A stretch of DNA of 64,000 nt, taken from assembly GCA_945888525.1 (NCBI GenBank), contig CAMDAF010000010.1:1-64000 (forward strand). The letters run 5' to 3'. Of the stretch, positions 1 through 15,043 are shown piece after piece. The notes under the pieces were generated by a model. That model searched no databases, had not been told where the DNA came from, and was given only the letters and a program-made list of their open reading frames with translations. This DNA comes from Chitinophaga pinensis. Lineage in GTDB: Bacteria > Bacteroidota > Bacteroidia > NS11-12g > UBA955. The translations under genes and the position numbers were made by a program. Position 1 is the first letter of the stretch. Every line of letters begins with the position of its first letter.

Positions 1-1590
1 TACAACAATGAAAGCACCACCACTTGTGGTCCTATCACTGCTGGTGAATACGAAGACTACGGCATTGTATTATTCAATGACAATAACCCTCCAGTAATTA
101 CTTTGAAAGGTAATGATACTGTAAGAATTGAAGTTGGTTCATCTTATACTGATGCTGGTGCAACTGCATATGATGCCTCAGAAGGTGATATCACTTCAGC
201 TATGACAAGTGCAAATGACCTTGATGCTGCTGTTACAGGTTTATATACTTATGAATATAACGTTACAGATAAATCAGGTAACAAAGCTGCTCCAGCTATT
301 CGTACAATCATTGTAGTTAACGATTTAACCAAGCCAGTTTTAACCTTAAACCCGGGGAATGCTGGTTGTATTGAAGCAAGAAGAGACAACGCTCCTTATG
401 TTGATCCAGGCGCTACGGCAACTGACAACAAAGCTCCTTTCAACTTAACTTCATCAATTCTTACAAGTGGATCTGTTGATTCACGTACTATTGGAAGCTA
501 TGTTATTACCTACTCTGTTAAAGATGTAGCTGGTAATATGATTAGCAAAACTAGAACAGTTTGTGTTGAAGATACAAAAGCTCCTGCTATTGATACTTTA
601 GGTGACAATAGAATTCAAATTGGAAGTGTTTGGTTTGACCAAACAACTGCAATAGATGCTTATGATAATTCTCCAGTATTGGTTAAAACATGGGGCTTCA
701 ATGGCTCAGTTAATACTTTATTAAGAAGAACGTATCCAGTAGTTTATACTGCATACGATCAAAGCTCTAACCAATCGACTGCGGTTGCTAGAAATTACAG
801 AGTAGACGACTTTATCGCCCCAGTAATTAGCTTAAATACATTTGATGTTGTTTACCATGAAGTAAGAACTTCTTACAACTCAGTATCTGCATCTGTATCT
901 GATAACTATTATGGACCAGGTCAAGTAAGTTTGGTTAAAATCTTCAGTGATGTTGATGCAACAAAACTTGGTACCTATACAGAAGTATATGAAGCTGTAG
1001 ATGGTTCTGGAAACAAAACTCAAAAAATCAGAACTGTAAAAGTGGTTGACACTCAAGCTCCAAGAATTTGGGGAGAAATCATCCATGGTTGTGTAGGCGA
1101 AAATATATGGCCAATGTTCGGTATTTCAACTACCGACAACTACTATAGTCCTGCTGATTTGAAGCCATTGGTTGAGATCGTTAATCAAAATGTTAACATT
1201 TGGGAAGAAGGTATTTATTCAATTACTTACAGAGTAACTGATCCAAGTAACAATACTTCTAATGAGTTTACTAGATTGGTTTACTTCACCTACTGGCCAA
1301 AATGCTTTAACAGCACTGTTTCAGTAAATGATGTTAAATCTATTGAAGAGACAGTTAGCGTTTACCCTAATCCAAGCAATGGTATTGTAAATGTTGATTT
1401 ACAAGGTTTAATTGCTCAAAATGCAAGTATCGAAGTATACAATGCGATGGGTCAATTAATATTGGTAAACAACTATACTGAGTCAAACAGCAAATTTGAA
1501 ATCAACTTAAGCGGCAATGCAAGTGGTATCTATACCATCAAATTAATTGCAGACGGTCAAGTGATTACCAAACGCGTTGTTTTACAATAA
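1..1590 (+). CDS. T9SS cargo protein with Ig-like repeats, 5' truncated by window edge
   Basis: The reading frame is open from base 1 (codons read YNNESTTTCGPITAGEYEDY), so the tracked ATG at 103 is internal and the gene begins outside the window. What is visible is the end of a GEVED domain (GEYEDY), then about five DUF5011/HYR-like Ig modules of 75-95 residues (repeated 'DxSGNK…RTIIVV' and 'YVDPGATATDN' patterns), then a type A T9SS sorting domain starting near SVNDVKSIEE with VYPNPSNG and ending in KRVVLQ. The protein is therefore predicted to cross the outer membrane through T9SS and be attached or released at the surface; its ligand is unknown. It matches the C-terminal half of the next gene module for module, so the two are tandem duplicates. 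A rho-independent terminator follows directly. Confidence 0.9.
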   Translation, partial: YNNESTTTCGPITAGEYEDYGIVLFNDNNPPVITLKGNDTVRIEVGSSYTDAGATAYDASEGDITSAMTSANDLDAAVTGLYTYEYNVTDKSGNKAAPAIRTIIVVNDLTKPVLTLNPGNAGCIEARRDNAPYVDPGATATDNKAPFNLTSSILTSGSVDSRTIGSYVITYSVKDVAGNMISKTRTVCVEDTKAPAIDTLGDNRIQIGSVWFDQTTAIDAYDNSPVLVKTWGFNGSVNTLLRRTYPVVYTAYDQSSNQSTAVARNYRVDDFIAPVISLNTFDVVYHEVRTSYNSVSASVSDNYYGPGQVSLVKIFSDVDATKLGTYTEVYEAVDGSGNKTQKIRTVKVVDTQAPRIWGEIIHGCVGENIWPMFGISTTDNYYSPADLKPLVEIVNQNVNIWEEGIYSITYRVTDPSNNTSNEFTRLVYFTYWPKCFNSTVSVNDVKSIEETVSVYPNPSNGIVNVDLQGLIAQNASIEVYNAMGQLILVNNYTESNSKFEINLSGNASGIYTIKLIADGQVITKRVVLQ

Positions 1591-1640
1591 GATATAAATA
1601 ATTATTCTAAAAAGGGGTGCATTTGATGCACCCCTTTTTT
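1418..1640 (+). repeat. Near-identical 3' block, copy 1 (sorting tail plus terminator)
   Basis: From base 1418 to the stop codon this block differs from 5848-6020 at only 4 of 173 positions by my reading, all synonymous third positions, and the identity continues through the post-stop sequence gatataaataattattcta into the terminator. The roughly 40 bases just upstream differ at about seven positions, so identity rises abruptly. Confidence 0.85.
1609..1640 (+). terminator. Rho-independent terminator
   Basis: The stem AAAGGGGTGCA pairs with TGCACCCCTTT around a five-base loop and runs into a T tract. It lies 19 bases after the stop of the first T9SS gene. Confidence 0.9.
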
Positions 1641-1721
1641 TATGTTAAGACAATTCCACCCATATTTTGGGAAATAAGTTCCAGTCATTTTTTTATCATT
1701 TTTTTTGCCCAATTGGTAATT

Positions 1722-1748
1722 CTTTAATTTCTTTAATTTCTTTAATTT
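1722..1748 (+). repeat. Three tandem copies of a 9-bp unit
   Basis: The unit ctttaattt is repeated three times in the AT-rich spacer between the two paralogous T9SS genes. It is a small microsatellite with no visible role. Confidence 0.6.
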
Positions 1749-1907
1749 TAATTCATATATCTTTAAATAACAGTTATTTAACATTAAATATATTTCTTTT
1801 TATTTCATTGTAATAGTTAAAAAATTAACAATTATCTTCTATTATATATTCCATAATATTAAAATATTGCTAAAAACACATTAAATTGCAAGCCAATTAT
1901 TATTTAT

Positions 1908-4900
1908 ATGGATAACTTTACTAACAAAATCAACGGAAGAAAAGAACTAAATAGACTAATCGGTCTATTGTGTTTATTTATTCTTGGAATTAATTCTGTG
2001 TCTGCACAGTATTGTTCTTCAAACGCAGTCTCAACTGCAGACGAAGATATTGCTTCGGTATACCTAAAAGGTAATACTGTTACATTAAACAATGTATCTT
2101 CAACTCCGACATGTCAACTCTATACAGATTGGACAGGTTTAACGCCTGTGGACTTATCTGCTGGCCGTTCTTATACGATCACTATTGTTGAAAGCACATG
2201 CAATGGTCACTACACCTATGCATGTAATGCCTGGATTGATTACAACAGAGATGGTACTTTTCAGAAAGCTGAGGCAGTTGCTGCAACCTCTCAAAGTAAG
2301 AATGGCGCAGGTGCTACATTTACTTATACGTGGTCTGTGCCATGTAACATCACACCTGGTAACACCAGAATGCGTGTTGTAATGATCGAAGGTGCTGTTA
2401 ACAATCCAGGTTCTGCATGTGGAACCTACACTTGGGGTGAAACAGAAGATTACACAGTTAATCTTCAATTGCCTTCATCTGTAAGCTCTAACTTTATAGC
2501 ACCTTCAAGTGCTTGGATTAAAACGGTTGTAAAATTTTTAAATAGCAATCCTAGTGGTTATATATCTCACGAATGGGATGCTAATAATGATGGTTCTATA
2601 GAGGCACCCAACAGTGTTAATTTTAATTACACTTGGAACTCTGGCGGAACCCAGTGTGTTAAATTGAAAAGCACCAATTGTTTGGGTAGCGATTCAATCG
2701 TTAAATGTTTGACTTTAAATACGCCAACTGCTATACCTGTAGGCGATTTCGTTGCCAATAGGTTGACTGTTGAACAATATGAAATTACACAATTGTTTGA
2801 TTTATCTTCAAACGGACCATATGAGTGGACTTGGGACGTATACGATTCAACCACTTATGCGTCATCTGGATTTTATCCTTGTTTAGCAACAGGGGAGGTT
2901 TATTCTGATCCAAATGGTAATGGAAATAATGAGTTTACTCAAAATCCTCAATTTGCTTTCGATATCCCAGGTTGTTATACAGTGACCTTAACTTCTAAGA
3001 ATGATATTGGGCCTTCTGCGCCTCTTAGAAAGACTTGTTACGTCACCGTTACCCTACCAACTCAATATAACTTAGGATACGGCACCTATGGGCCTAACAG
3101 CGACAACGTTGTTGGAAGTACAGGAGGAACTATCTTTGATGACGGCGGTCCAAACCTAAACTATGCTAACAGTCAAGGTTTAGGCTCTCGCTCTTACCTT
3201 CAGATTACTCCTTGTAATGCTAAGAAAATTACTTTAACCATGACCCGCCTCAAGTTTAAAGATGTTGCAGATAAATTAAGCGTTTGGGACGGTAAAACTC
3301 CAGGCGGATCAGGATCTACGCTTTTGGCTTCATGGACAAAAGGAGCAAAGGTGCCAGCTACAGTTGTTGCAAAGAGTGGAAGCATGTATATTTTGTTTGA
3401 ATCAGACGGTGCGGGAGTAGATTCTGGCTATGCTGGTTCTTATGTCTCAGAGCTTGGCCCTGCTACTTTGCCAACGCCTTCATTTAGCTCAAATTCAGTT
3501 CCTAATTACAATGCCACTCCAGCAATGTTCACCAATAAGACTCAAAATATCGTTGGTGTTCCTACATGGGAGTGGACTATTGATGATAATCAAGTTTCTA
3601 ACAATGCCAAAAAGGATTTTAGATATACCTTCTATACCGACGGTCAGTACAAAGTGTGTCTTGAAATGAAATCTTGTGTTGGCAACAATAAAACATGTAC
3701 CACAATTGATGTAGTTACGCCAAGTACTTCAACTGAACTTGACGCTGTTGTGTCTAACCGTAGACCAAGAGTAAGCAATGATTTAGTTACCTTCAAGGCA
3801 ATTAGCGACAAAGCCAATAGATTTGAATGGGGTATTTTCCCAACGACTTATACTTTAATGAATGCCCCTGCTAGTCCTTCAACTTACGGACCAGGCTTCA
3901 TTAAATACAATGCTACGCCTGGCGATAGCATTCCAATGCCAATCATTAAGTTTACTTCTCCTGGTTGTTATACAATTAGCTTGAAGGGCTATAACTCACT
4001 AGATCCAACAAATACCTCTAAAACAATTGTTAAAAATAAATTCGTTTGTGCTTTAGACTATTGTTCTCCGTCATCATACATACTGTCTACTGACGTTGGT
4101 ATCAACAGGGTTAAATTAACTGACAATGGCGTTGATTTAATTAACAACTACACCACTTCAGGCATAAATCCTTATACTGATTACAGTGATCAAATCAGCG
4201 CTAACTTAACTTATGGTAAAAAATACACGCTTGAAGTTTCTAGAAATAGCAATGTTGACCCTGCCAATAGAAAAGCTTGGATTGACTGGAACATAGATGG
4301 TGATTTTGATGATGCAGGTGAAGAATTATTCTATGAAACCAGCACTTACAATCAAACAAAATCTCTTGTAATTACCGTTCCTGCTTTGTCTCAGTCATTT
4401 GAAGGTAAAACCAAGTTGCGTGTTGCTATTAATTACAACAATGAATCTACCACACCTTGCGGTCCAATTACTGCAGGAGAATATGAAGACTATAGCATTG
4501 TCTTAGCTAATGATAACCAACGCCCGGTTATTACCCTTAAAGGTAGTGATACCGTAAGAATGGAAGTTGGTGCTTCTTATACCGATGCTCTAGCAACTGC
4601 TTATGATGCTTCGGAAGGTGATATCACATCTGATATTGTAATGACTACAGATTTGGATGCGAATGTTACAGGTATGTACACTTCTGAATTTAATGTAACA
4701 GATAAATCTGGCAATAAAGCTCAACCAGTATCAAGGGTTATAATTGTTGTCAATGATTTAACGAAGCCAATTTTAACTTTAAATCCAGGCAGCACGAAAT
4801 GTTTACAAGCAGATAGAACCAATGCGCCTTATGTTGATCCAGGTGCAACGGCAACCGACAACAAAGCGCCATTTAATTTAACTTCAGCAATTGTTACTAC

Positions 4901-6020
4901 AGGTTTTGTTGATTCAAAAGTGGTTGGCAATTATGTATTGACCTATACAGTTAAAGATGTTTCTGGAAATATGGTAATGAAAACTAGAGACATTTGCGTA
5001 GTTGATACAATTGCTCCATTCTTTACTGCTGGCGGTGATGACAAAATTCAAATTGCAAGTGTTTGGTTCGACCAAACAACAGTTGAAGATGGCTATGATA
5101 ACAATCCAATGTTGATCAAAAATTGGGGCTTTAATGGTCCTGTAAATACGCTATTGAAAAGGACTTACCCAGTTGTTTATACCGCAAAAGATTCTACAGG
5201 TAATTCAGCAACGTTAAGCCGTAATTATGTTGTTGATGACTATATAGCTCCAACAATTATTTTAAATACTTTTGAAGTTGTAAACCATAAAGTAAGAACA
5301 CCATACTATTCTATTGCTCCATCTGTAACAGATAACTATTATGGCCCTGGTCAAGTTAGTTTGGTTAAAATATTCGACAATGTAAATGAAAATATTGTTG
5401 GTGTTTATACTGAAGTTTATGAAGCTATAGATGGTTCTGGTAATACTTCTCAAAGAACGCGCACCGTTAAGGTAGAAGATAAAGTAGCGCCAAGTATTTG
5501 GGGAGAAATCATCCACGGTTGTGTAGGAGAAAACATATGGCCAATGTGGGGATTATCTACTGCTGATAACTATTATAGTCCTAATGATTTAAAACCTTTG
5601 ATTGAGATAGTTAGTCAAAATGTAAATATTTGGGAAGAGGGTGTATATAATATTACCTATAGAGTTACAGACCCAAGCAACAATACTTCAGATGATTATA
5701 CTAGATATGTTTACATGACCTACTGGCCAAGATGCTTCAACAGCACAATATCAGTAAACGATGTTAAATCTATTGAAGAAACAGTTAGTGTATACCCTAA
5801 CCCAAGTAATGGTATTGTAAATATTGACTTGCAAGGCTTAGTAGCTAAAAATGCAAGTATCGAAGTATACAATGCGATGGGTCAATTAATATTGGTAAAC
5901 AACTACACTGAGTCAAACAGCAAATTTGAAATCAACTTAAGTGGCAATGCAAGTGGTATTTATACCATCAAATTGATTGCAGACGGTCAAGTGATTACCA
6001 AACGCGTTGTTTTACAATAA
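1908..6020 (+). CDS. Giant T9SS cargo protein with GEVED, PKD, CUB-like and Ig-like modules
   Basis: This is a 1370-aa secreted protein. Residues about 15-33 form a signal peptide ending SVSAQ. A first GEVED domain follows (WIDYNRDG … GETEDYTV, to about 185), then PKD-like modules, then a CUB-like domain (about 385-505; GSRSYLQITPCNAKKITL, LSVWDG, ILFESDG), more PKD modules, a second GEVED (about 720-866; AWIDWNIDGDF … GEYEDYSIV), five DUF5011-like Ig modules, and a type A T9SS sorting tail (about 1280-1370). GEVED, PKD and CUB modules are common in adhesive or glycan- and protein-binding surface proteins, so a surface adhesin or a shell component is the inference; no catalytic domain was recognised. 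The C-terminal half is a paralogue of the preceding gene. The ATG start gives a good signal peptide. Confidence 0.92.
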   Translation: MDNFTNKINGRKELNRLIGLLCLFILGINSVSAQYCSSNAVSTADEDIASVYLKGNTVTLNNVSSTPTCQLYTDWTGLTPVDLSAGRSYTITIVESTCNGHYTYACNAWIDYNRDGTFQKAEAVAATSQSKNGAGATFTYTWSVPCNITPGNTRMRVVMIEGAVNNPGSACGTYTWGETEDYTVNLQLPSSVSSNFIAPSSAWIKTVVKFLNSNPSGYISHEWDANNDGSIEAPNSVNFNYTWNSGGTQCVKLKSTNCLGSDSIVKCLTLNTPTAIPVGDFVANRLTVEQYEITQLFDLSSNGPYEWTWDVYDSTTYASSGFYPCLATGEVYSDPNGNGNNEFTQNPQFAFDIPGCYTVTLTSKNDIGPSAPLRKTCYVTVTLPTQYNLGYGTYGPNSDNVVGSTGGTIFDDGGPNLNYANSQGLGSRSYLQITPCNAKKITLTMTRLKFKDVADKLSVWDGKTPGGSGSTLLASWTKGAKVPATVVAKSGSMYILFESDGAGVDSGYAGSYVSELGPATLPTPSFSSNSVPNYNATPAMFTNKTQNIVGVPTWEWTIDDNQVSNNAKKDFRYTFYTDGQYKVCLEMKSCVGNNKTCTTIDVVTPSTSTELDAVVSNRRPRVSNDLVTFKAISDKANRFEWGIFPTTYTLMNAPASPSTYGPGFIKYNATPGDSIPMPIIKFTSPGCYTISLKGYNSLDPTNTSKTIVKNKFVCALDYCSPSSYILSTDVGINRVKLTDNGVDLINNYTTSGINPYTDYSDQISANLTYGKKYTLEVSRNSNVDPANRKAWIDWNIDGDFDDAGEELFYETSTYNQTKSLVITVPALSQSFEGKTKLRVAINYNNESTTPCGPITAGEYEDYSIVLANDNQRPVITLKGSDTVRMEVGASYTDALATAYDASEGDITSDIVMTTDLDANVTGMYTSEFNVTDKSGNKAQPVSRVIIVVNDLTKPILTLNPGSTKCLQADRTNAPYVDPGATATDNKAPFNLTSAIVTTGFVDSKVVGNYVLTYTVKDVSGNMVMKTRDICVVDTIAPFFTAGGDDKIQIASVWFDQTTVEDGYDNNPMLIKNWGFNGPVNTLLKRTYPVVYTAKDSTGNSATLSRNYVVDDYIAPTIILNTFEVVNHKVRTPYYSIAPSVTDNYYGPGQVSLVKIFDNVNENIVGVYTEVYEAIDGSGNTSQRTRTVKVEDKVAPSIWGEIIHGCVGENIWPMWGLSTADNYYSPNDLKPLIEIVSQNVNIWEEGVYNITYRVTDPSNNTSDDYTRYVYMTYWPRCFNSTISVNDVKSIEETVSVYPNPSNGIVNIDLQGLVAKNASIEVYNAMGQLILVNNYTESNSKFEINLSGNASGIYTIKLIADGQVITKRVVLQ

Positions 6021-6072
6021 GATATAAATAATTATTCTAAAAAAGGGGTGCATTTAATGCACCCCTTTTTTT
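5848..6072 (+). repeat. Near-identical 3' block, copy 2 (sorting tail plus terminator)
   Basis: This is the counterpart of 1418-1640 at an offset of 4430 bases. It includes the last 58 codons, the post-stop spacer and the terminator hairpin, which differs by one inserted A and one loop base. Confidence 0.85.
6039..6072 (+). terminator. Rho-independent terminator
   Basis: The stem AAAAGGGGTGCA pairs with TGCACCCCTTTT around a short loop, followed by Ts. It is nearly the same hairpin as the one at 1609-1640. Confidence 0.9.
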
Positions 6073-6422
6073 ATGTTGTTTTTCCTTTTTTAATACCATC
6101 ACAGGTATCAAAATTAGTTTTGGATTTATTGCCTAATATTTATTAAGAATACTGATTATATAGCCATTAATCCAATTACAATAAGCGAACCGGCGAACTA
6201 AATATCCTAATTGGCTGAAGCGCCCATTTGGGTATTTCAGATGCAATTATGATCAAGGATTGCTTAAAAAGAGTGAAAGTATGACCCAGCCCAATAAAAA
6301 AGAATTGGCGTAAGCCTAAAAATGAAACACCAAAGGATATTTTCTTGAATCCCTATCCAATATTGTTAAATGAGTAAAATAAAGGCCAAGCAAAGTAAAC
6401 GGTTTTGAACTGGCGCAAAATC
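6073..6422. other. 350-bp spacer with no recognised gene
   Basis: It holds only short open stretches, the longest about 40-60 codons on either strand and each broken by stops. None resembles a family I know. There is no tRNA-like fold or promoter box I would defend. It separates the T9SS terminator from the 3' end of glyA and may contain old gene debris. Confidence 0.5.
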
Positions 6423-7700
6423 TTAACTATACAATGGAAATTGTTTCATCCAGTTATTTACCTCAAGCTTGATATCCATTAAAACATCTGGATTGTCATG
6501 ATTCATAAGTGCTTTATCTATTAAGCTTGCTATTTTAGACATATCTTCTTCTTTCATGCCGCGTGATGTTATTGCCGGCGTGCCTAAGCGTATTCCTGAG
6601 GTAACAAATGGAGACCTGGTTTCGAAAGGCACAGTATTTTTATTGATGGTAATATCACATTTAACCAATGTGTTTTCTGCCAATTTACCAGTAATCATGT
6701 CGCCTTTTGGGCGCAAATCAATTAGCATTAGATGGTTATCTGTTCCACCAGAAATTATTTTATAGCCCAGTTCTACCATACTTTTGGCCAATGCGTTGGC
6801 GTTGGACTTTACTTGCTTCATATATGTTCTATATTCTTCAGTTAAAGCTTCTCCAAATGCTACTGCCTTTGATGCAATGACATGTTCTAACGGACCGCCT
6901 TGGGTACCAGGAAAAACAGCACCATCGAGAATTGCACTCATCATTTTGATTTCACCTTTTGGGGTCTTTATACCCCAAGGATTTTCAAAGTCTTTACCCA
7001 TCATAATGATACCCCCCCTTGGCCCTCTCAAAGTTTTATGGGTGGTAGAGGTAACTATATGGCAATATGGAAGCGGGTTGTTTAATAAACCAGCCGCAAT
7101 TAATCCTGCAGGATGTGAAATGTCTGCCAACAAAAGGGCTCCAACACTATCAGCGATTTCACGCAATGTTTTATAATCCCAATCTCTACTGTAAGAAGAA
7201 GCCCCACATATAATTAATTTTGGTTGCTCCCTTTTTGCAATTTCTGCAATTTTATTGAAGTCTATTAACCCCGTTTCTTCTTCAACACCATAAAAACTTG
7301 GCACATATAATTTACCAGAAAAATTAACTGGCGATCCATGGGTTAAGTGACCACCATGGCTCAAATCAAAACCTAAAATCTTATCTCCCGCATTTAGGCA
7401 TCCAAGCATTACAGCTGCATTGGCTTGGGCCCCGCTGTGAGGCTGAACGTTTGCCCACTCAGCGCCAAATAATTGCTTAAGTCTATCAATAGCAATTTGT
7501 TCAACTTGGTCTACAATTTCACAGCCTCCATAATATCTTTTGCCAGGTAAACCTTCGGCATATTTATTTGTCAAAACACTTCCCATGGCTTCCATGACCT
7601 GTCTAGAAACAAAATTTTCTGAAGCGATTAATTCAATGCCATGTTCTTGGCGTTCTTGTTCTAAATTGATTAGATCGAATATTTGTGTATCTCTTTGCAT
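6423..7700 (-). CDS. glyA: Serine hydroxymethyltransferase
   Basis: The enzyme interconverts serine plus tetrahydrofolate with glycine plus 5,10-methylene-THF in the cytosol, and so feeds one-carbon units to thymidylate and purine synthesis (thyA and purM lie elsewhere in the window). The PLP-binding lysine is K222 in [13 protein letters not shown]. The N-terminal LIASENFVS and [15 protein letters not shown] motifs are intact, and the length of 425 aa is typical. The tracked ORF starts 13 codons earlier at 7739, but the TATCTTTG promoter box at 7711-7718 lies inside that extension, and family members begin near [11 protein letters not shown], so I chose the ATG at 7700. The gene is divergent from the 2420-aa CHU_C gene. 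Confidence 0.97.
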
Positions 7701-7710
7701 GATATAAGCA

Positions 7711-7718
7711 CAAAGATA
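7711..7718 (-). promoter_or_regulatory. Bacteroidota -7 box for glyA
   Basis: TATCTTTG on the minus strand matches TAnnTTTG and ends 10 bases before the chosen ATG. It decides the start at 7700 over 7739. Confidence 0.6.
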
Positions 7719-7743
7719 TTTAAAGTTTTTAAATTCCAATTAT

Positions 7744-7780: not shown

Positions 7781-10700
7781 TTGATAAAATTATACCGTCA
7801 TAGCATTCGTGTAGTATTTTTTCTATTTATGCTCTTGGCGCAAAATACATTTGCGCAAGGGAATCGTTTGTCAATTCAGTCTACCGGGCCTTCTAAACTA
7901 AGCATATGCGGGGTAAATGATACTTCATATTTTGAAATTTACAATATATCCTCAGGAACCGTTACCTCCATTATTGTTAAACTAAATCTACCAAGCGGTA
8001 TTAAATATGTCAAAAATACGCTTATTGGCGCAGGGATGAGTGAAAGCAATGTTTCAAATTTAAACCAACCTGAATTTTCGGCTCCTAATCTGGCAATTGC
8101 TAAGAATTTTAAATTTAAATTATTGCTTACGGCAGACTGTGATTTATTGTCTTATTTATCTAGTAATATTCCCTCACTACAAGTAAGAGCCAATTATACA
8201 GGCAATTATGATGTTGGATCTTCAATACCTTTTCAGGTTCGTGTGCCCTCGGCTCAGATTGCATCAATAGCTAACCTATCGTTTGTTGGTGATATAGGCA
8301 CAAAATTTACAAGAACAATTACTGTTGGAAATTATGGAAAAGGTCCTTTAAGAGAATTGAAATTTAAGAGAATCAATGGCAAGGATGTTCAAACATTTTT
8401 TGTAAACAAGGGTAACAATTCCTTTACAGCAGATACGGTTACCAGCACTTTTGGAACCTCATTTTTTAAGACAATTGGTAATTTAGACACCTTTTTAGAC
8501 CAAAATGAAACCTTTACAATTATAGATTCAAATGTTATAAAAGGGTGTAAGCAGCTTAATACTGCTTTTGAACTAACTTGGGGTTGCAATAAAAAATTCT
8601 GTCAGACAGCCAAAACCAGTGGATCTGCTTCCATTAGCAACAAGAGTCCCGTCCTAAAAGCTATACCATATCCGGTGACGCCAACATGTTACAATAAAAA
8701 TATTTTTAAATCTGAAATTCGATTTGTTAATACTGGTAATATGCTTGCAGTAAGCCCACGGGTTTCAATATCATTAAATTACCCTTATGTGATGTCAACT
8801 TTTGACACCTCATCTATTAGGATTAAGGTTGGCTATAAAGGCACGTATAGTAAAGTAGCTAAAGACAGTACAACTGCAACTTATAATTTGGGATATTACG
8901 GATGTATTGGCTTATATCCGATCGGATTTTTCAGACTAAAATCTCCAGATTTAAAACCCAATGACACACTTTTTGTAACCTGGAGTACCGAAACTTGCAC
9001 GGTACCTGTTTGTTCAAATGCTTATATGCTTGTTAATTGTTGGGCATATTATGCGGATTATCAGGACCAATGTAAAAATTTAAAAAATGTTCCATGGGCT
9101 TGGGGAAAAGTATATGATCAGCACTACATGACTTCTAGTTCCTTTTCTCCAACCGATCTTATCAATGGACAGAAAGGAGAATTCAGGACTTTAATAAGCT
9201 CTGCTAGTTTGTTTCCTACCAGTTCAAGCGCTCGTTATTATGTAGATTTAATATTGCCCCCTGGTTTAGTTCATAGCAAACAAAAAAAAGATTTATATTT
9301 TATAAATTCTGATTTAACCGCAAATTGGAACCCTGATAGCATTGCACAAATAGGAGATACAATAAGAGGGTATTTTCCGCATCCAATTCCGATTTCACTG
9401 ACCAATGCTGAATTGGTTTATTATCTAACTGCAGATTGTTCTAAAACAGGCGCCAATGGCAATAAATCAATTAAATTGCAGATTAGGTATAACCCAGATA
9501 AAAATTGTAATCCCAAAGAGTGGCTGTATTTGACTTGTCAAACGATGTCAGTTAAAATCCATTGCGTTAGCAATTGTGGAGGCGGTTTAAAATTTAGAAA
9601 TTTCTCAGTGCAGAGAGTCAATTTTGGTAAACCTGATAATAATAATGATGGCAAACCTGATAATACAGGTTCAATAGACACCCTTAAAGTTCGTGAAGAA
9701 AGATGCTTTGTTGGCGATACCATTATGGCTGTATATACTGGCACAGTTAAGAGAACATCTTCTATAATATCTTGGCGTTATAATTACATTGAATCAGATA
9801 TTACCGGCGGTAAATTTTTAGATATTGTTGGAATACAATTATTGGTTTGGCGAAGAGGGATTACCCTATCGACCAATTGCACCCAAATTCGCAGTTACAA
9901 AACCATATCAGGGAACAATGCTACGTTTAAAATTCATCTTAGCACAGATTCTTTGTTGTCGTGTGTTTCGAATTCTTATAGATACAATAACGATGACAGC
10001 ATAATTGTGAGAGTAAAATATAAGGTAAGCTCCAATATTGGCGCGTCTACCATGAATATTAATTTCACAAACAGGTTTTATACCAGCAATGTTGTTAATC
10101 CTACCAGCAATGCGAACAAGTTTCAGTGCGATACATTTAGTGGCCAGATGATTATGGCAGGTTATTATTTTTACACTTGTTGCGCCGATAATTATCAGTT
10201 AAACTCATGTGCTCAAGTGGCGGTGAATAATTACTATTATATGGTCATTGGTTCATGCTGTTCTAATTATGGCGGCAATAATTATTTTCCATATGAATAT
10301 AGAAATTTTGCCAGATTAAAAGCGGTAAGATTTTATATGCCAAGTGGCTTTACAATGAAGAAATCAATATTTGCCCAGTATCGAACTGCAGGGTCAAATA
10401 AAACAGCTTACGAGTTAAAAGATACAATTAGGCCAGTCAATGTTAACGCATATCCAATTTCATATGATGTTAGAAAGTATTTTGTTGATTCGGCCAAAGG
10501 AATGGTCAATTATAGTGACGATGCATTTCATGGGTATTTTCAAGCATTTATAGAGCCTTCTTGTTCAATTCAATCTCAAGGCAATATTCCAATTAAGTAC
10601 GATTTTATTTTTGAAAGACTTAATACATTAGGCTCCGGATATGATACGGTCTCAAGTGGCAATACCGATAATATTATTTACAATAAACCTGTAACGACAA

Positions 10701-13700
10701 TAAAGTCTATTTTTCCTACAATTTACGCCTCAAAAGACACCGCCGAATGGGAATTAGAGTACACAAATTATTCGGCAACTTTTAGCAATATCAATGCATG
10801 GTTTGCGCCGGATAATAGTGGAGCTGTTAAAATAGTGCAGATTAAAGATGCAGCAAGTGATACTTCCATGCCCTCAAAAAATTTGATTTTTAAATTGGGC
10901 ACTATTCCGTCTAATAAATCAAGAAAATTTAAGGTTAGAGCAATCTACAACAGCTGTAATAAAGACAGTGTAATTTTATATTCTGGTTGGAATTGTCAAT
11001 CATATCCAAATGATTTGGCATCATTTAATTGTTTGAAAGATAAAATAACATTATACATTGAACCTCAAAATACCCAGTTTCAAAGCTCCATTACCGACTC
11101 GGTAAATGTTGTGGATTTATGTGCAAATTCACCCTATACTTTAACGATAGAAAATGCAGGGATAACAAATGGTTATAACCCTAAGGCTTTTATTAGTTTA
11201 CCAATTGGAATGAGCGTAGTTCCTGGTTCTTGTTATTTAAAATATCCGCACAAAGGAAGTAAGACATCGATCCCATTACCAACACTAAAAAGCGGAACAA
11301 CTTATGAGTGGAATTTAGGCGCTTATAATACCGCCCTAAGTTCTGGGCTGAAAGGCATTAATGATACCAATAAAAATAAGATCATTGTATATTTCAGGGT
11401 TAAGACGGATTGCAATTATTCAAGCGGAAATTATATAAGGGCAGGTGGATCAGGAAACATTAAATGCGGGGATCCTATTTTAAGTTATTCATGTATCAGC
11501 AATCCATTAAACATTAAAGGCGTTACAAGACCATATTATACCCTCTTAAAAACGGAATCAGACTCAATATTTCCTTGTGAAAAAGGCAGTAAATTAAAAG
11601 TAAAAATTATCAATCTTGGCCCTTCAAAAACCGGGATAGAAGATAAATATCAAGTTGTTTTACTTCCAGGAATGGTGTTCGACTCGGCATCTTTTAACAA
11701 CATTAACAATGGCCCAAACAATACATTGACAAAGAGTAGAAATATTAATGGTGCTACAGAGGTGGAATTTAGTTTGCCAAGCAATGTAATACCTGGCGAT
11801 AGTATGGCATTTGAATTTAATTATACTACCGATGGCAAAAAGGTGAATTGCGGCAATTTGGATTTATACAGTCAAGCTGCCGTTAAGCAGGAAGTGGTTT
11901 GCGTTTCAGATAATTCAAAATGTAAAATAAATGTTGTAACCGGAAATAGCTTATTAAAAGTTCCAGTCTTTAAAGGCGCAATAAGCTTCTTTGGACTGAA
12001 AAGCAAGTTGGTGTTTACCAGTTCAGATTCTGAATCTTTAGATTTAACCTACAGCATTAGAAATACAGGAAATAAAATAATTTCATCCAATCCAATTGTT
12101 TTGAAATATGTTTATGATAGAAATAATTCTGGAACTGCTGATCCTAAAGACTTAGTGGCCTATATTGACACACAATATCTTAATTTAGCCAAGAACGGAG
12201 TTGTAAGCATAAACAAGAAAATTAAAGTAAAGGCAGGCCTTTCTTGTGCTTTGTTTGTGCTATTAGATTCTGCTTCCTGTAGCTGTAATTTTGTGTACAG
12301 CAAGTTTCCAATTCCATCATTAAAAAACGCAGGCGTTTCAAAATCCGTTTGTAGTGGAGACACCATGAAAATTGGAATTGGAAAGGTTAATGGTTATAGA
12401 TATTTGTGGAGCCCGGGAATAGAATTAAACGATGATACTATTTCAAATCCTTTCGGAGTTTTCAATAATTCAGACACAGGTAAAATACGAAAACAATTTA
12501 TATTGACAACCTACAGAGGTCAATGCAACAGCAAGGACACGACTTTTATTGATATTTATAAATTACCTCAAATAAGTATATTACAAAATGATACGACTGT
12601 TTGCAGCGGACAAAAAGTACTTTTAAAAACCTTGGTTAAAAGCAGCAATGGCGGATTGAGAATTTCATGGACACCAAACTATAAAATAACAGATACAACA
12701 AGTTATAATCCTACCGTTCAAGCCCAAAAAGATACAAAATACAAAGCCACCTTGATCGACAGCAAAAATTGTTACGCTATGGATTCTATTTCAATTTTTA
12801 CCAAAGAATATCCAAAGGCTAACTTTGGTTTTTCCAAAGCATGTGATGGCAATTTAATTACCATTTCAGATTCATCAAAAGTCTTAAACGATAGTATTGC
12901 TTATCTAAGATGGATAGAAAACACATTGGATACCTTTAACGTCACTAACTTTAGTTTTGATTTAAAGGGGAAATTAAGCAGCAGCATAAAACTAACCGCA
13001 AAATCATCGTTTGGATGCACAGATACCATTCGAAAAACAATATTTGTGAACCCATTGCCTAGCGCTAAATTTTTAAGCAACAATGTGTGTTTTGGAGATT
13101 CAATTCAATTTAAAGACCTCTCTAAGGTTTTAACCGGTTTTATAAGTAATTATAAAATTGATATGGGAGATGGCATACAATATTTTAAATCAAATTTTAA
13201 ACACCATTATGCTGTTGCCGATACTTATAACATTTCATTGTACATAGCATCCGATCAGAATTGCATGGATACATTTAGAAATGATGTTATTGTTTACCCA
13301 AGACCTCAAGCTGGTTTTAGTGTTTCAAATGTATGCAGTCAAGACAGCCTAAAACCAATTAATTTATCTAGTATTTTTAATGATTCAATTCTTGCGTACC
13401 AATGGGTAATACTAAGCGATACTTTTAATGTTAAGACTCCAGTATTTTATTACCTTAAAGATACAGTTTACAAAATAGAACTCAAGACCGTTTCAAGTAT
13501 GGGTTGTCGTGACAGCATAAACAAATCTGTAGAAGTTTATACCAATCCAATAGCCGGCTTTAATGTATTGCCTGTATGCGAGGGAAAGAAAAGCTCAGTT
13601 TTTAGTAATTCGTCTTTAAATAAAGGAAACATTATTTCTCACAATTATAATATTAGCGATGGCAGTTTATATACAAATCCAAATTATGTTCATGCTTTTG

Positions 13701-15043
13701 CCAAAGGCGACACCTTTGATATTAGATTAATTGTAAGCTCTAATAAAGGCTGTAAAGACACAATAACTAAGCAAGCCATAGTGTATCCTCGAATTAATCC
13801 TGGTTTCACTACCACGGATACCTGTGTTACGGACTTGGTAATTGTCAAAGACAGATCACAGTTCATAAATACAGGGATACGCAATTGGATTTATGACTTC
13901 GGAAATGGGGATTCGGTATTTATTGCCAATCCGTATTATAAATATTCTAAGCCTGGCACCTATACCGTTAAACAAATAGTTATTAGCAATGAAGGCTGTA
14001 TTTATGATACAAGTGGATTGCTCAACATTTATCCTCAACCTATTGCAGAATTCAGAGATACCAATAAGTGCGTTGATAATCAATTTAAATTTTTTACAAG
14101 ATCAAACATTAGTTCGGGATCGATTAATACTTATAAATGGTTATTTAGCGATAATACCAGCTCTTTATTAAAAGACCCAAATCACATATTTCCAAGTTCG
14201 GGTAATTTTAAAATAAAGCATATAGTTTATAGCAATTTTGGATGTGTTGACTCAATAGAAAAGTCAGTGGTTAGTTACCCGCCTGTTGTTGTTAAATTTA
14301 GCGCTCAGAATGTTTGTCTAGGCGATCCAATTGAGTTTATAGACAAAAGTATAGTTCCAAGTTCGAGCATTAAAAAATACCTTTGGCAATTTGGGGACAC
14401 TGATACGTCTATGTTGAAGCAACCAAAGCATACGTATCTTTTAAGTGATACATTTAACGTTAAGTTGAGGATTACAACAGGCTATAATTGTGATTATGAT
14501 ACAAGCGATAAAGTAGTGGTTTATCCTGTTCCGGTGGCAAGTTTTAAAACAGATCCTGATCAGGGCACCATTGTTAACCCAGAAATTCAAATTACAGATT
14601 TGAGTATGGGCGCAGATACATTAATTTATGATTTGGGTGATGGCAACTATTCAATGATGCGAAACTTGGTCAATAGCTATCCAGATAGCGGTGTGTTTAC
14701 GCTGCGACAAACGGTTTGGAATATTTATGGTTGCAGAGACACTTTTATTAAAACAATCACTATAAGGTACCTCTATGTTTTCAATGCTCCTACTGCATTT
14801 TCTCCTAATGGTGATGGAATAAATGACTTTTATGCACCTGGTGGAATTGGAATTAAATATTATGAAATGAACATTTTTAACCGTTGGGGTGAGATGGTGT
14901 ATAAAACAGATAATAGCATTCCATGGGATGGAAAATATATGGAAAATGATGTCATGGAAGGAATGTATGCAGTAACCTTTAAAGTGAGAGATTTTAAAGG
15001 CAGATGGCATTTCTTAAAAACAAGTTTTTTGTTGTTGCGTTAA
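7781..15043 (+). CDS. Giant surface protein with PKD repeats and gliding-associated (CHU_C) C-terminus
   Basis: This is a 2420-aa protein exported by Sec and then T9SS. The signal peptide is residues 1-26 (…LFMLLAQNTFAQ). Residues about 27-1500 are long DUF11-like, Cys-containing beta modules (phrases such as 'NIGSGT', 'LPSGIKYVKN'). From about 1500 to 2330 come an Ig-like module (VCSGDTMKIGIGK) and a run of PKD-type modules, each with a 'YxFGDGD/…HxYxxxGTYxVKL' pattern. Residues about 2332-2420 are the T9SS type B CHU_C domain (FSPNGDGINDFY, IFNRWGEMVY, WDGKY). The start codon is TTG; no in-frame ATG would keep the signal peptide. No enzyme domain is visible; adhesion or a filamentous surface role is inferred. 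No terminator was found after the stop. Confidence 0.92.
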   Translation: MIKLYRHSIRVVFFLFMLLAQNTFAQGNRLSIQSTGPSKLSICGVNDTSYFEIYNISSGTVTSIIVKLNLPSGIKYVKNTLIGAGMSESNVSNLNQPEFSAPNLAIAKNFKFKLLLTADCDLLSYLSSNIPSLQVRANYTGNYDVGSSIPFQVRVPSAQIASIANLSFVGDIGTKFTRTITVGNYGKGPLRELKFKRINGKDVQTFFVNKGNNSFTADTVTSTFGTSFFKTIGNLDTFLDQNETFTIIDSNVIKGCKQLNTAFELTWGCNKKFCQTAKTSGSASISNKSPVLKAIPYPVTPTCYNKNIFKSEIRFVNTGNMLAVSPRVSISLNYPYVMSTFDTSSIRIKVGYKGTYSKVAKDSTTATYNLGYYGCIGLYPIGFFRLKSPDLKPNDTLFVTWSTETCTVPVCSNAYMLVNCWAYYADYQDQCKNLKNVPWAWGKVYDQHYMTSSSFSPTDLINGQKGEFRTLISSASLFPTSSSARYYVDLILPPGLVHSKQKKDLYFINSDLTANWNPDSIAQIGDTIRGYFPHPIPISLTNAELVYYLTADCSKTGANGNKSIKLQIRYNPDKNCNPKEWLYLTCQTMSVKIHCVSNCGGGLKFRNFSVQRVNFGKPDNNNDGKPDNTGSIDTLKVREERCFVGDTIMAVYTGTVKRTSSIISWRYNYIESDITGGKFLDIVGIQLLVWRRGITLSTNCTQIRSYKTISGNNATFKIHLSTDSLLSCVSNSYRYNNDDSIIVRVKYKVSSNIGASTMNINFTNRFYTSNVVNPTSNANKFQCDTFSGQMIMAGYYFYTCCADNYQLNSCAQVAVNNYYYMVIGSCCSNYGGNNYFPYEYRNFARLKAVRFYMPSGFTMKKSIFAQYRTAGSNKTAYELKDTIRPVNVNAYPISYDVRKYFVDSAKGMVNYSDDAFHGYFQAFIEPSCSIQSQGNIPIKYDFIFERLNTLGSGYDTVSSGNTDNIIYNKPVTTIKSIFPTIYASKDTAEWELEYTNYSATFSNINAWFAPDNSGAVKIVQIKDAASDTSMPSKNLIFKLGTIPSNKSRKFKVRAIYNSCNKDSVILYSGWNCQSYPNDLASFNCLKDKITLYIEPQNTQFQSSITDSVNVVDLCANSPYTLTIENAGITNGYNPKAFISLPIGMSVVPGSCYLKYPHKGSKTSIPLPTLKSGTTYEWNLGAYNTALSSGLKGINDTNKNKIIVYFRVKTDCNYSSGNYIRAGGSGNIKCGDPILSYSCISNPLNIKGVTRPYYTLLKTESDSIFPCEKGSKLKVKIINLGPSKTGIEDKYQVVLLPGMVFDSASFNNINNGPNNTLTKSRNINGATEVEFSLPSNVIPGDSMAFEFNYTTDGKKVNCGNLDLYSQAAVKQEVVCVSDNSKCKINVVTGNSLLKVPVFKGAISFFGLKSKLVFTSSDSESLDLTYSIRNTGNKIISSNPIVLKYVYDRNNSGTADPKDLVAYIDTQYLNLAKNGVVSINKKIKVKAGLSCALFVLLDSASCSCNFVYSKFPIPSLKNAGVSKSVCSGDTMKIGIGKVNGYRYLWSPGIELNDDTISNPFGVFNNSDTGKIRKQFILTTYRGQCNSKDTTFIDIYKLPQISILQNDTTVCSGQKVLLKTLVKSSNGGLRISWTPNYKITDTTSYNPTVQAQKDTKYKATLIDSKNCYAMDSISIFTKEYPKANFGFSKACDGNLITISDSSKVLNDSIAYLRWIENTLDTFNVTNFSFDLKGKLSSSIKLTAKSSFGCTDTIRKTIFVNPLPSAKFLSNNVCFGDSIQFKDLSKVLTGFISNYKIDMGDGIQYFKSNFKHHYAVADTYNISLYIASDQNCMDTFRNDVIVYPRPQAGFSVSNVCSQDSLKPINLSSIFNDSILAYQWVILSDTFNVKTPVFYYLKDTVYKIELKTVSSMGCRDSINKSVEVYTNPIAGFNVLPVCEGKKSSVFSNSSLNKGNIISHNYNISDGSLYTNPNYVHAFAKGDTFDIRLIVSSNKGCKDTITKQAIVYPRINPGFTTTDTCVTDLVIVKDRSQFINTGIRNWIYDFGNGDSVFIANPYYKYSKPGTYTVKQIVISNEGCIYDTSGLLNIYPQPIAEFRDTNKCVDNQFKFFTRSNISSGSINTYKWLFSDNTSSLLKDPNHIFPSSGNFKIKHIVYSNFGCVDSIEKSVVSYPPVVVKFSAQNVCLGDPIEFIDKSIVPSSSIKKYLWQFGDTDTSMLKQPKHTYLLSDTFNVKLRITTGYNCDYDTSDKVVVYPVPVASFKTDPDQGTIVNPEIQITDLSMGADTLIYDLGDGNYSMMRNLVNSYPDSGVFTLRQTVWNIYGCRDTFIKTITIRYLYVFNAPTAFSPNGDGINDFYAPGGIGIKYYEMNIFNRWGEMVYKTDNSIPWDGKYMENDVMEGMYAVTFKVRDFKGRWHFLKTSFLLLR

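What the first reader, a model, noticed from the sequence alone, without database searches (positions are those of the whole stretch)
1418..6072. Tandem T9SS genes share a homogenised 3' end
The last 173 coding bases of the two paralogues differ at only four synonymous sites by my reading, and identity continues into the intergenic hairpin. Immediately upstream, about seven differences occur in 39 bases, and the Ig modules before that are clearly diverged. The sharp step, and the inclusion of non-coding sequence, suggests recent gene conversion or recombination through the sorting-tail block, a route by which surface-protein bodies could be exchanged while keeping the T9SS tail.
Basis: seen in the sequence. 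Interest (0 to 1): 0.6.

Follow-up and report, generated by a model that had tools for sequence, protein, structure and literature searches.

The report
Gene-converted secretion tails of twin genes
Two old neighbouring genes for large bacterial surface proteins have recently been made identical again only at their last 173 coding bases and terminator, and the same local copying recurs independently in related species, so this is ordinary gene conversion at work on the part that directs secretion.

Summary
The last 173 coding bases of gene A (1418-1590) and gene B (5848-6020) differ at 4 synonymous sites, against 7 differences in the 39 bases before. Near-identity continues through the terminator and stops about 6 nt after its T-run. 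No other copy exists among about 71 T9SS tails of the genome. Selection on the tail does not explain it: between species, synonymous sites in the tail diverge as much as in the body. With the relative G009, 441 of 534 informative sites upstream of residue 1281 group genes by orthologue (A with A, B with B), but 17 of 21 after it group them by genome. AU tests agree. So A and B are an old pair whose tails were homogenised after the species separated.

The pattern recurs: five tandem pairs in two genera show a 3'-terminal homogenised tract, against none of 250 between-genome pairs. Dispersed loci also homogenise (glyA/peroxiredoxin-linked in G001 and G002; tatD/feoB-linked in G000, G009 and G015).

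Gene conversion is well supported. The extra idea, a route for exchanging bodies, is not: the body shows no mosaic here. The kind of event is known; its recurrence at T9SS tails appears undescribed in the literature searched.

The parts
1..1590 (+). Gene A, 3' part (529 codons): GEVED end, Bact_surface_Ig-like repeats, T9SS type A sorting tail (Por_Secre_tail); 5' part on contig C31
1318..1417 (+). Shoulder in gene A: 15 differences in 100 nt from B
1418..1590 (+). Homogenised coding tract in gene A (4 synonymous differences in 173 nt)
1591..1646 (+). Homogenised 3'UTR with intrinsic terminator hairpin and T-run of gene A (55 identities to B)
1908..6020 (+). Gene B, complete (1370 codons): two GEVED, PKD, Bact_surface_Ig-like, T9SS type A sorting tail
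5848..6020 (+). Homogenised coding tract in gene B
6021..6077 (+). Homogenised 3'UTR with intrinsic terminator of gene B
6423..7739 (-). glyA (serine hydroxymethyltransferase): flank that marks the B locus, conserved in G001, G002, G009, G010, G012, G015

Best explanation
A and B are old tandem paralogues encoding large T9SS-exported, Ig/PKD/GEVED-type surface proteins. After the separation from the G009 lineage, their 3' ends (the last ~57 codons, most of the sorting tail, plus 3'UTR and terminator) were made alike again by homologous, non-crossover recombination (gene conversion). The tract ends upstream inside homologous coding sequence and downstream where homology between the two copies ends, just past the terminator. 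Shown: tract, boundaries, tree conflict and recurrence in relatives. Inferred: RecA-type recombination as the agent, and the reason the tail is kept homogeneous while the bodies are not, namely that tails are interchangeable so their conversion is tolerated, whereas conversion of the diverged bodies is hindered by low identity or removed by selection. The direction (A to B or B to A) could not be fixed.
For: Tract and boundaries. Only two copies in the genome; other T9SS tails do not match. Between-species synonymous identity in the tail equals that in the body (A: 72 vs 71%; B: 64 vs 61%), so there is no special nucleotide constraint. Dispersed paralogues have tails less alike than bodies. 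Informative sites: residues before 1281, 441 orthologue-wise, 59 genome-wise, 34 crossed; from 1281 on, 2, 17 and 2. AU test: body orthologue-wise (others at most 4e-5), tail genome-wise (orthologue-wise p 0.003 for 90 codons, 0.03 for 57). Recurrence: G009, G012, G015 (same genus) and G023 (another genus) have 3'-terminal tracts of 60-101 synonymous codons, with terminator included in G012 and G023; 0 of 250 between-genome pairs show one. All five are adjacent tandem pairs (5/15 vs 0/27 non-adjacent, Fisher p 0.0035).
Against: For the window pair alone the permutation p is moderate (0.0002-0.0015) and the boundary has a shoulder rather than a single step. Direction is unpolarised. The genome is an incomplete assembly (63 contigs) and gene A is split between contigs. 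Bodies of G012 and G015 also group by genome, so those pairs may be separate younger duplications with extra tail homogenisation, or may have older body-wide conversion. In G032 the tract lies in the body and spares the tail, so tail preference is not a rule.
Confidence: 0.88

Rival explanations
1. The tail and terminator are conserved by purifying selection (protein, RNA structure or terminator function) and no recombination is involved.
For: The T9SS tail is functionally needed; the terminator is a real hairpin.
Against: Between species the same tails diverge at synonymous sites as fast as the body; non-tandem paralogues' tails are less conserved than their bodies; other T9SS tails in the genome share only about 24-38% amino acids with this one; terminators differ between species.
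Confidence: 0.03
2. A recent tandem duplication in which the bodies then diverged very fast, so the tail simply shows the true age.
For: B-type bodies sit on longer branches than A-type bodies in the body tree.
Against: G009 has orthologous A and B bodies with support 1.0 and AU near 1, so the duplication is older than the species split, while the tails are younger than it; body synonymous sites are also strongly diverged (60% of same-residue codons identical).
Confidence: 0.03
3. Assembly artefact: the assembler or mixed strains copied one tail onto the other.
For: Contigs of several relatives break at these tails, and the window itself begins inside gene A.
Against: Both tails lie inside one contig with different flanks, differ at four coding sites and two UTR sites, and the same pattern is found inside long contigs of G012, G015 and G023. 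Breaks at shared k-mers are what true repeats produce.
Confidence: 0.04
4. The shared tail block is an exchange device: recombination through it swaps surface-protein bodies between loci.
For: In G001 one contig ends at the terminator T-run and shares exactly 149 nt with two different continuations, glyA-linked and peroxiredoxin-linked, which could mean mixed arrangements in the population; dispersed loci do share tails.
Against: No mosaic or swapped body in G000/G009: each body window with data groups by orthologue. The G001 fork is equally explained by a repeat whose second incoming branch was lost by the assembler.
Confidence: 0.06

Closest known systems
Gingipain genes rgpA/rgpB/kgp and hagA of Porphyromonas gingivalis (T9SS cargo with domain rearrangement; PMC5266723; non-reciprocal rgpA/rgpB rearrangement recalled from my own knowledge)
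   Same: T9SS surface proteins whose paralogous segments are homogenised or rearranged by recombination within a genome.
   Different: Gingipains are C25 proteases and differ or exchange in catalytic and adhesin domains; here the genes are non-enzymatic Ig/PKD/GEVED proteins and the tract is the sorting tail plus terminator.
KLIKK proteases of Tannerella forsythia (PMC4404884)
   Same: Several secreted proteins of one genome with different bodies and a nearly identical T9SS C-terminal domain.
   Different: Six proteases in two gene clusters; no recombination analysis is given in that paper (the terms recombination and conversion do not occur), so whether their tails or terminators are converted was not asked there.
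Concerted evolution of duplicated bacterial genes by gene conversion (general; e.g. release factor genes, PMC4530459)
   Same: Paralogues more alike within a genome than to their orthologues over a limited tract.
   Different: Here the tract is usually anchored at the 3' end, runs into non-coding sequence, and recurs at the same place in separate lineages.

Membership tests
Gene conversion / concerted evolution between paralogues | Tract in which paralogues of one genome group together while the flanking gene body groups by orthologue | tested here: met
   441/59 orthologue- vs genome-wise sites before residue 1281, 2/17 after; AU tests
Gene conversion / concerted evolution between paralogues | Synonymous and non-coding sites included, with borders not set by protein function | tested here: met
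   4 synonymous differences in 173 nt; terminator included
Gene conversion / concerted evolution between paralogues | Non-reciprocal transfer (donor unchanged) | tested here: inconclusive
   outgroup tails and UTRs do not polarise donor and recipient
Gene conversion / concerted evolution between paralogues | Dependence on homologous recombination proteins | not testable with these tools
   needs a culturable host and mutants
T9SS type A cargo | C-terminal Por_Secre_tail domain above the curated cut-off | tested here: met
   PF18962 54-55 bits (cut-off 27), TIGR04183 49-50 bits (cut-off 23)
T9SS type A cargo | T9SS translocon in the same genome | tested here: met
   SprA 2437 bits (cut-off 200)
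T9SS type A cargo | N-terminal signal peptide | tested here: inconclusive
   hydrophobic N-terminus LIGLLCLFILGINSVSAQ in B by eye; no predictor run
Gingipain-type rearranging T9SS proteases | C25 protease catalytic domain | tested here: not met
   no protease domain in either protein
Antigenic variation by cassette exchange | Mosaic bodies assembled from silent copies | tested here: not met
   no mosaic in the body; B, and both copies in G009, G012 and G015, are open reading frames

The most novel reading that the evidence does not exclude
The T9SS tail plus terminator acts as a recombination-prone 3' module in this bacterial family: tails of separate loci, tandem or dispersed, are repeatedly homogenised within each species, and living populations may carry rearranged combinations of bodies and downstream loci joined at the terminator (as the G001 contig fork would suggest).
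Probability: 0.15. Interest if true: 0.65.

Novelty: new member of a known kind. Interest (0 to 1): 0.42.

Why it matters
It shows that C-terminal sorting tails of T9SS cargo evolve in concert in uncultured Bacteroidota, independently of the bodies they export. That affects how tail trees are read, explains why assemblies of these genomes break at cargo genes, and gives a natural set of replicated conversion tracts (57 codons to whole genes) for asking whether tail uniformity is selected or merely tolerated.

Tried and rejected
Polarising the conversion with G009 and G010 failed: G010's B-locus UTR looks partly A-like and partly B-like, and G010's A tail is not assembled. The bodies belonging to the tatD- and feoB-linked tails could not be found, so whether those tracts are tail-only or longer is unknown. 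A strictly 3'-anchored rule was considered and dropped because of G032, where the body is identical and the tail diverged. G030 tandem genes show no tail homogenisation. Literature searches for T9SS cargo with gene conversion or concerted evolution found only gingipains and general cases; the library holds open-licence papers only.

Full report
Observation. Aligning window 1-1720 with 4429-6160 gives the step that was reported. In 1418-1590 against 5848-6020 there are 4 differences in 173 nt, all synonymous; in the 39 nt before there are 7, and in the 61 nt before those 8. Farther upstream, 100-nt windows are 59-85% identical. Downstream, the 3'UTR and terminator agree at 55 positions (one substitution, one indel) and homology stops about 6 nt after the T-run. 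The block has no further copy in the genome. Among about 71 T9SS type A tails, DNA comparison shows only this pair and one other pair above 85%. Gene A is cut by the contig start; its 5' part is at the end of contig C31, 90% identical in protein to the A gene of G009 and 65% to its B gene, and about 218 codons are missing between the contigs.

What the genes are. Both encode large proteins (B 1370 aa; intact A orthologues about 1410 aa) with GEVED, PKD and Bact_surface_Ig-like domains and a Por_Secre_tail. The genome has the T9SS translocon protein SprA. The homogenised 57 codons are the larger part of the sorting tail (B residues 1314-1370; domain 1295-1370). glyA follows B and marks the locus in G001, G002, G009, G010, G012 and G015. 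Named relatives are uncultured Bacteroidota MAGs.

Not selection. Between the species G000 and G009, synonymous identity in the tail (A 72%, B 64%) equals that in the body (71%, 61%), so the tail DNA is not specially constrained. Paralogues of the same family elsewhere in the same genomes have tails less alike than their bodies.

Not a young duplication. In the body, G000 A groups with G009 A and G000 B with G009 B (support 1.0; AU near 1). In the last 90 codons the genes group by genome and the orthologue grouping is rejected (AU p 0.003; 0.03 for the last 57 codons). Site by site, residues before 1281 give 441 orthologue-wise, 59 genome-wise and 34 crossed sites; from 1281 on 2, 17 and 2; in 1321-1370 it is 0, 13 and 0. 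The duplication predates the species split; the tail identity postdates it. That is gene conversion, or an equivalent double recombination.

Recurrence. A permutation test on synonymous codons over 45 within-genome pairs of this family finds a long 3'-terminal tract in five: G000, G009, G012, G015 and, in another genus, G023. G012 and G023 also share the terminator within the genome, and each has its own terminator sequence. All five are adjacent tandem pairs (5 of 15, against 0 of 27 non-adjacent; adjacency classed by me from the coordinates, test). Of 250 between-genome pairs none has such a tract; five reach p<0.01 with short internal segments. Three further pairs (G027, G032, G041) are nearly identical over most of the gene. 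G027 has two copies 542 kb apart with about 1140 identical codons and diverged first ~240 codons; G041 is similar; in G032 the body is identical and the tail is not.

Dispersed loci. In G002 one 4119-nt contig holding the gene shares its first 141 nt with the ends of two contigs and its last 141 nt with the starts of two others, one glyA-linked and one peroxiredoxin-linked: an exact repeat of almost the whole gene at two loci. In G001 the contig with the gene ends at the terminator T-run and shares 149 nt with a glyA-linked and a peroxiredoxin-linked contig. A separate cargo pair, tatD-linked and feoB-linked, has identical tails within G000 (149/149), one difference in 96 nt within G009, and two differences through the terminator within G015. 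In G000 and G009 the sequence right after the stop codon groups by locus while the coding tail groups by genome. The bodies of that pair are unassembled.

Mechanism and limits. Homologous non-crossover recombination is the best-supported process. Why tails are preferred is inference: they are interchangeable export signals, so conversion is tolerated, while diverged bodies recombine less or are protected by selection. Body exchange through the tail is not seen in this pair. Direction is not fixed. Data are MAGs, with the risks that brings.

Placement. It works like known gene conversion between paralogues and meets the testable core features of that class. Closest T9SS precedents are gingipain rearrangement and the near-identical tails of KLIKK proteases. 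Recurrent concerted evolution of T9SS tails with their terminators was not found described in the papers searched, but the kind of event is known.

Noticed in passing
L230:1-149 and L231:1-149 (contigs C59 and C35 of the window's genome): A second pair of T9SS tails, tatD-linked and feoB-linked, identical over 149 nt at two contig starts; the same two loci are homogenised separately in G009 and G015. Bodies not assembled.
   Followed up: partly
L258:949-5112 and L259:1094-5239 (G027): Two copies of this gene family 542 kb apart: about 1140 codons identical in DNA up to the stop codon, while the first ~240 codons are 60-85% alike in protein.
   Followed up: partly
L094 (G002 contig C7, whole), with L096, L097, L313, L314: A 4119-nt exact repeat of nearly the whole gene at two loci, seen as an assembly node with two entries and two exits.
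   Followed up: yes
L086 3' end, L308, L309 (G001): Contig fork exactly at the end of the terminator T-run into glyA-linked and peroxiredoxin-linked continuations, without a visible second entry; repeat or mixed arrangement in the population.
   Followed up: partly
L262 (G032 C54): Same-contig copies with identical bodies but tails only 84-96% identical: the opposite polarity to the window pair.
   Followed up: no
window 7781-15043: 2420-aa protein that looks T9SS-related, ending in what looks like a gliding-motility-type C-terminal domain (by eye, no domain search run), next to glyA and conserved with it in G009, G010, G012, G015 and partly in G002.
   Followed up: no
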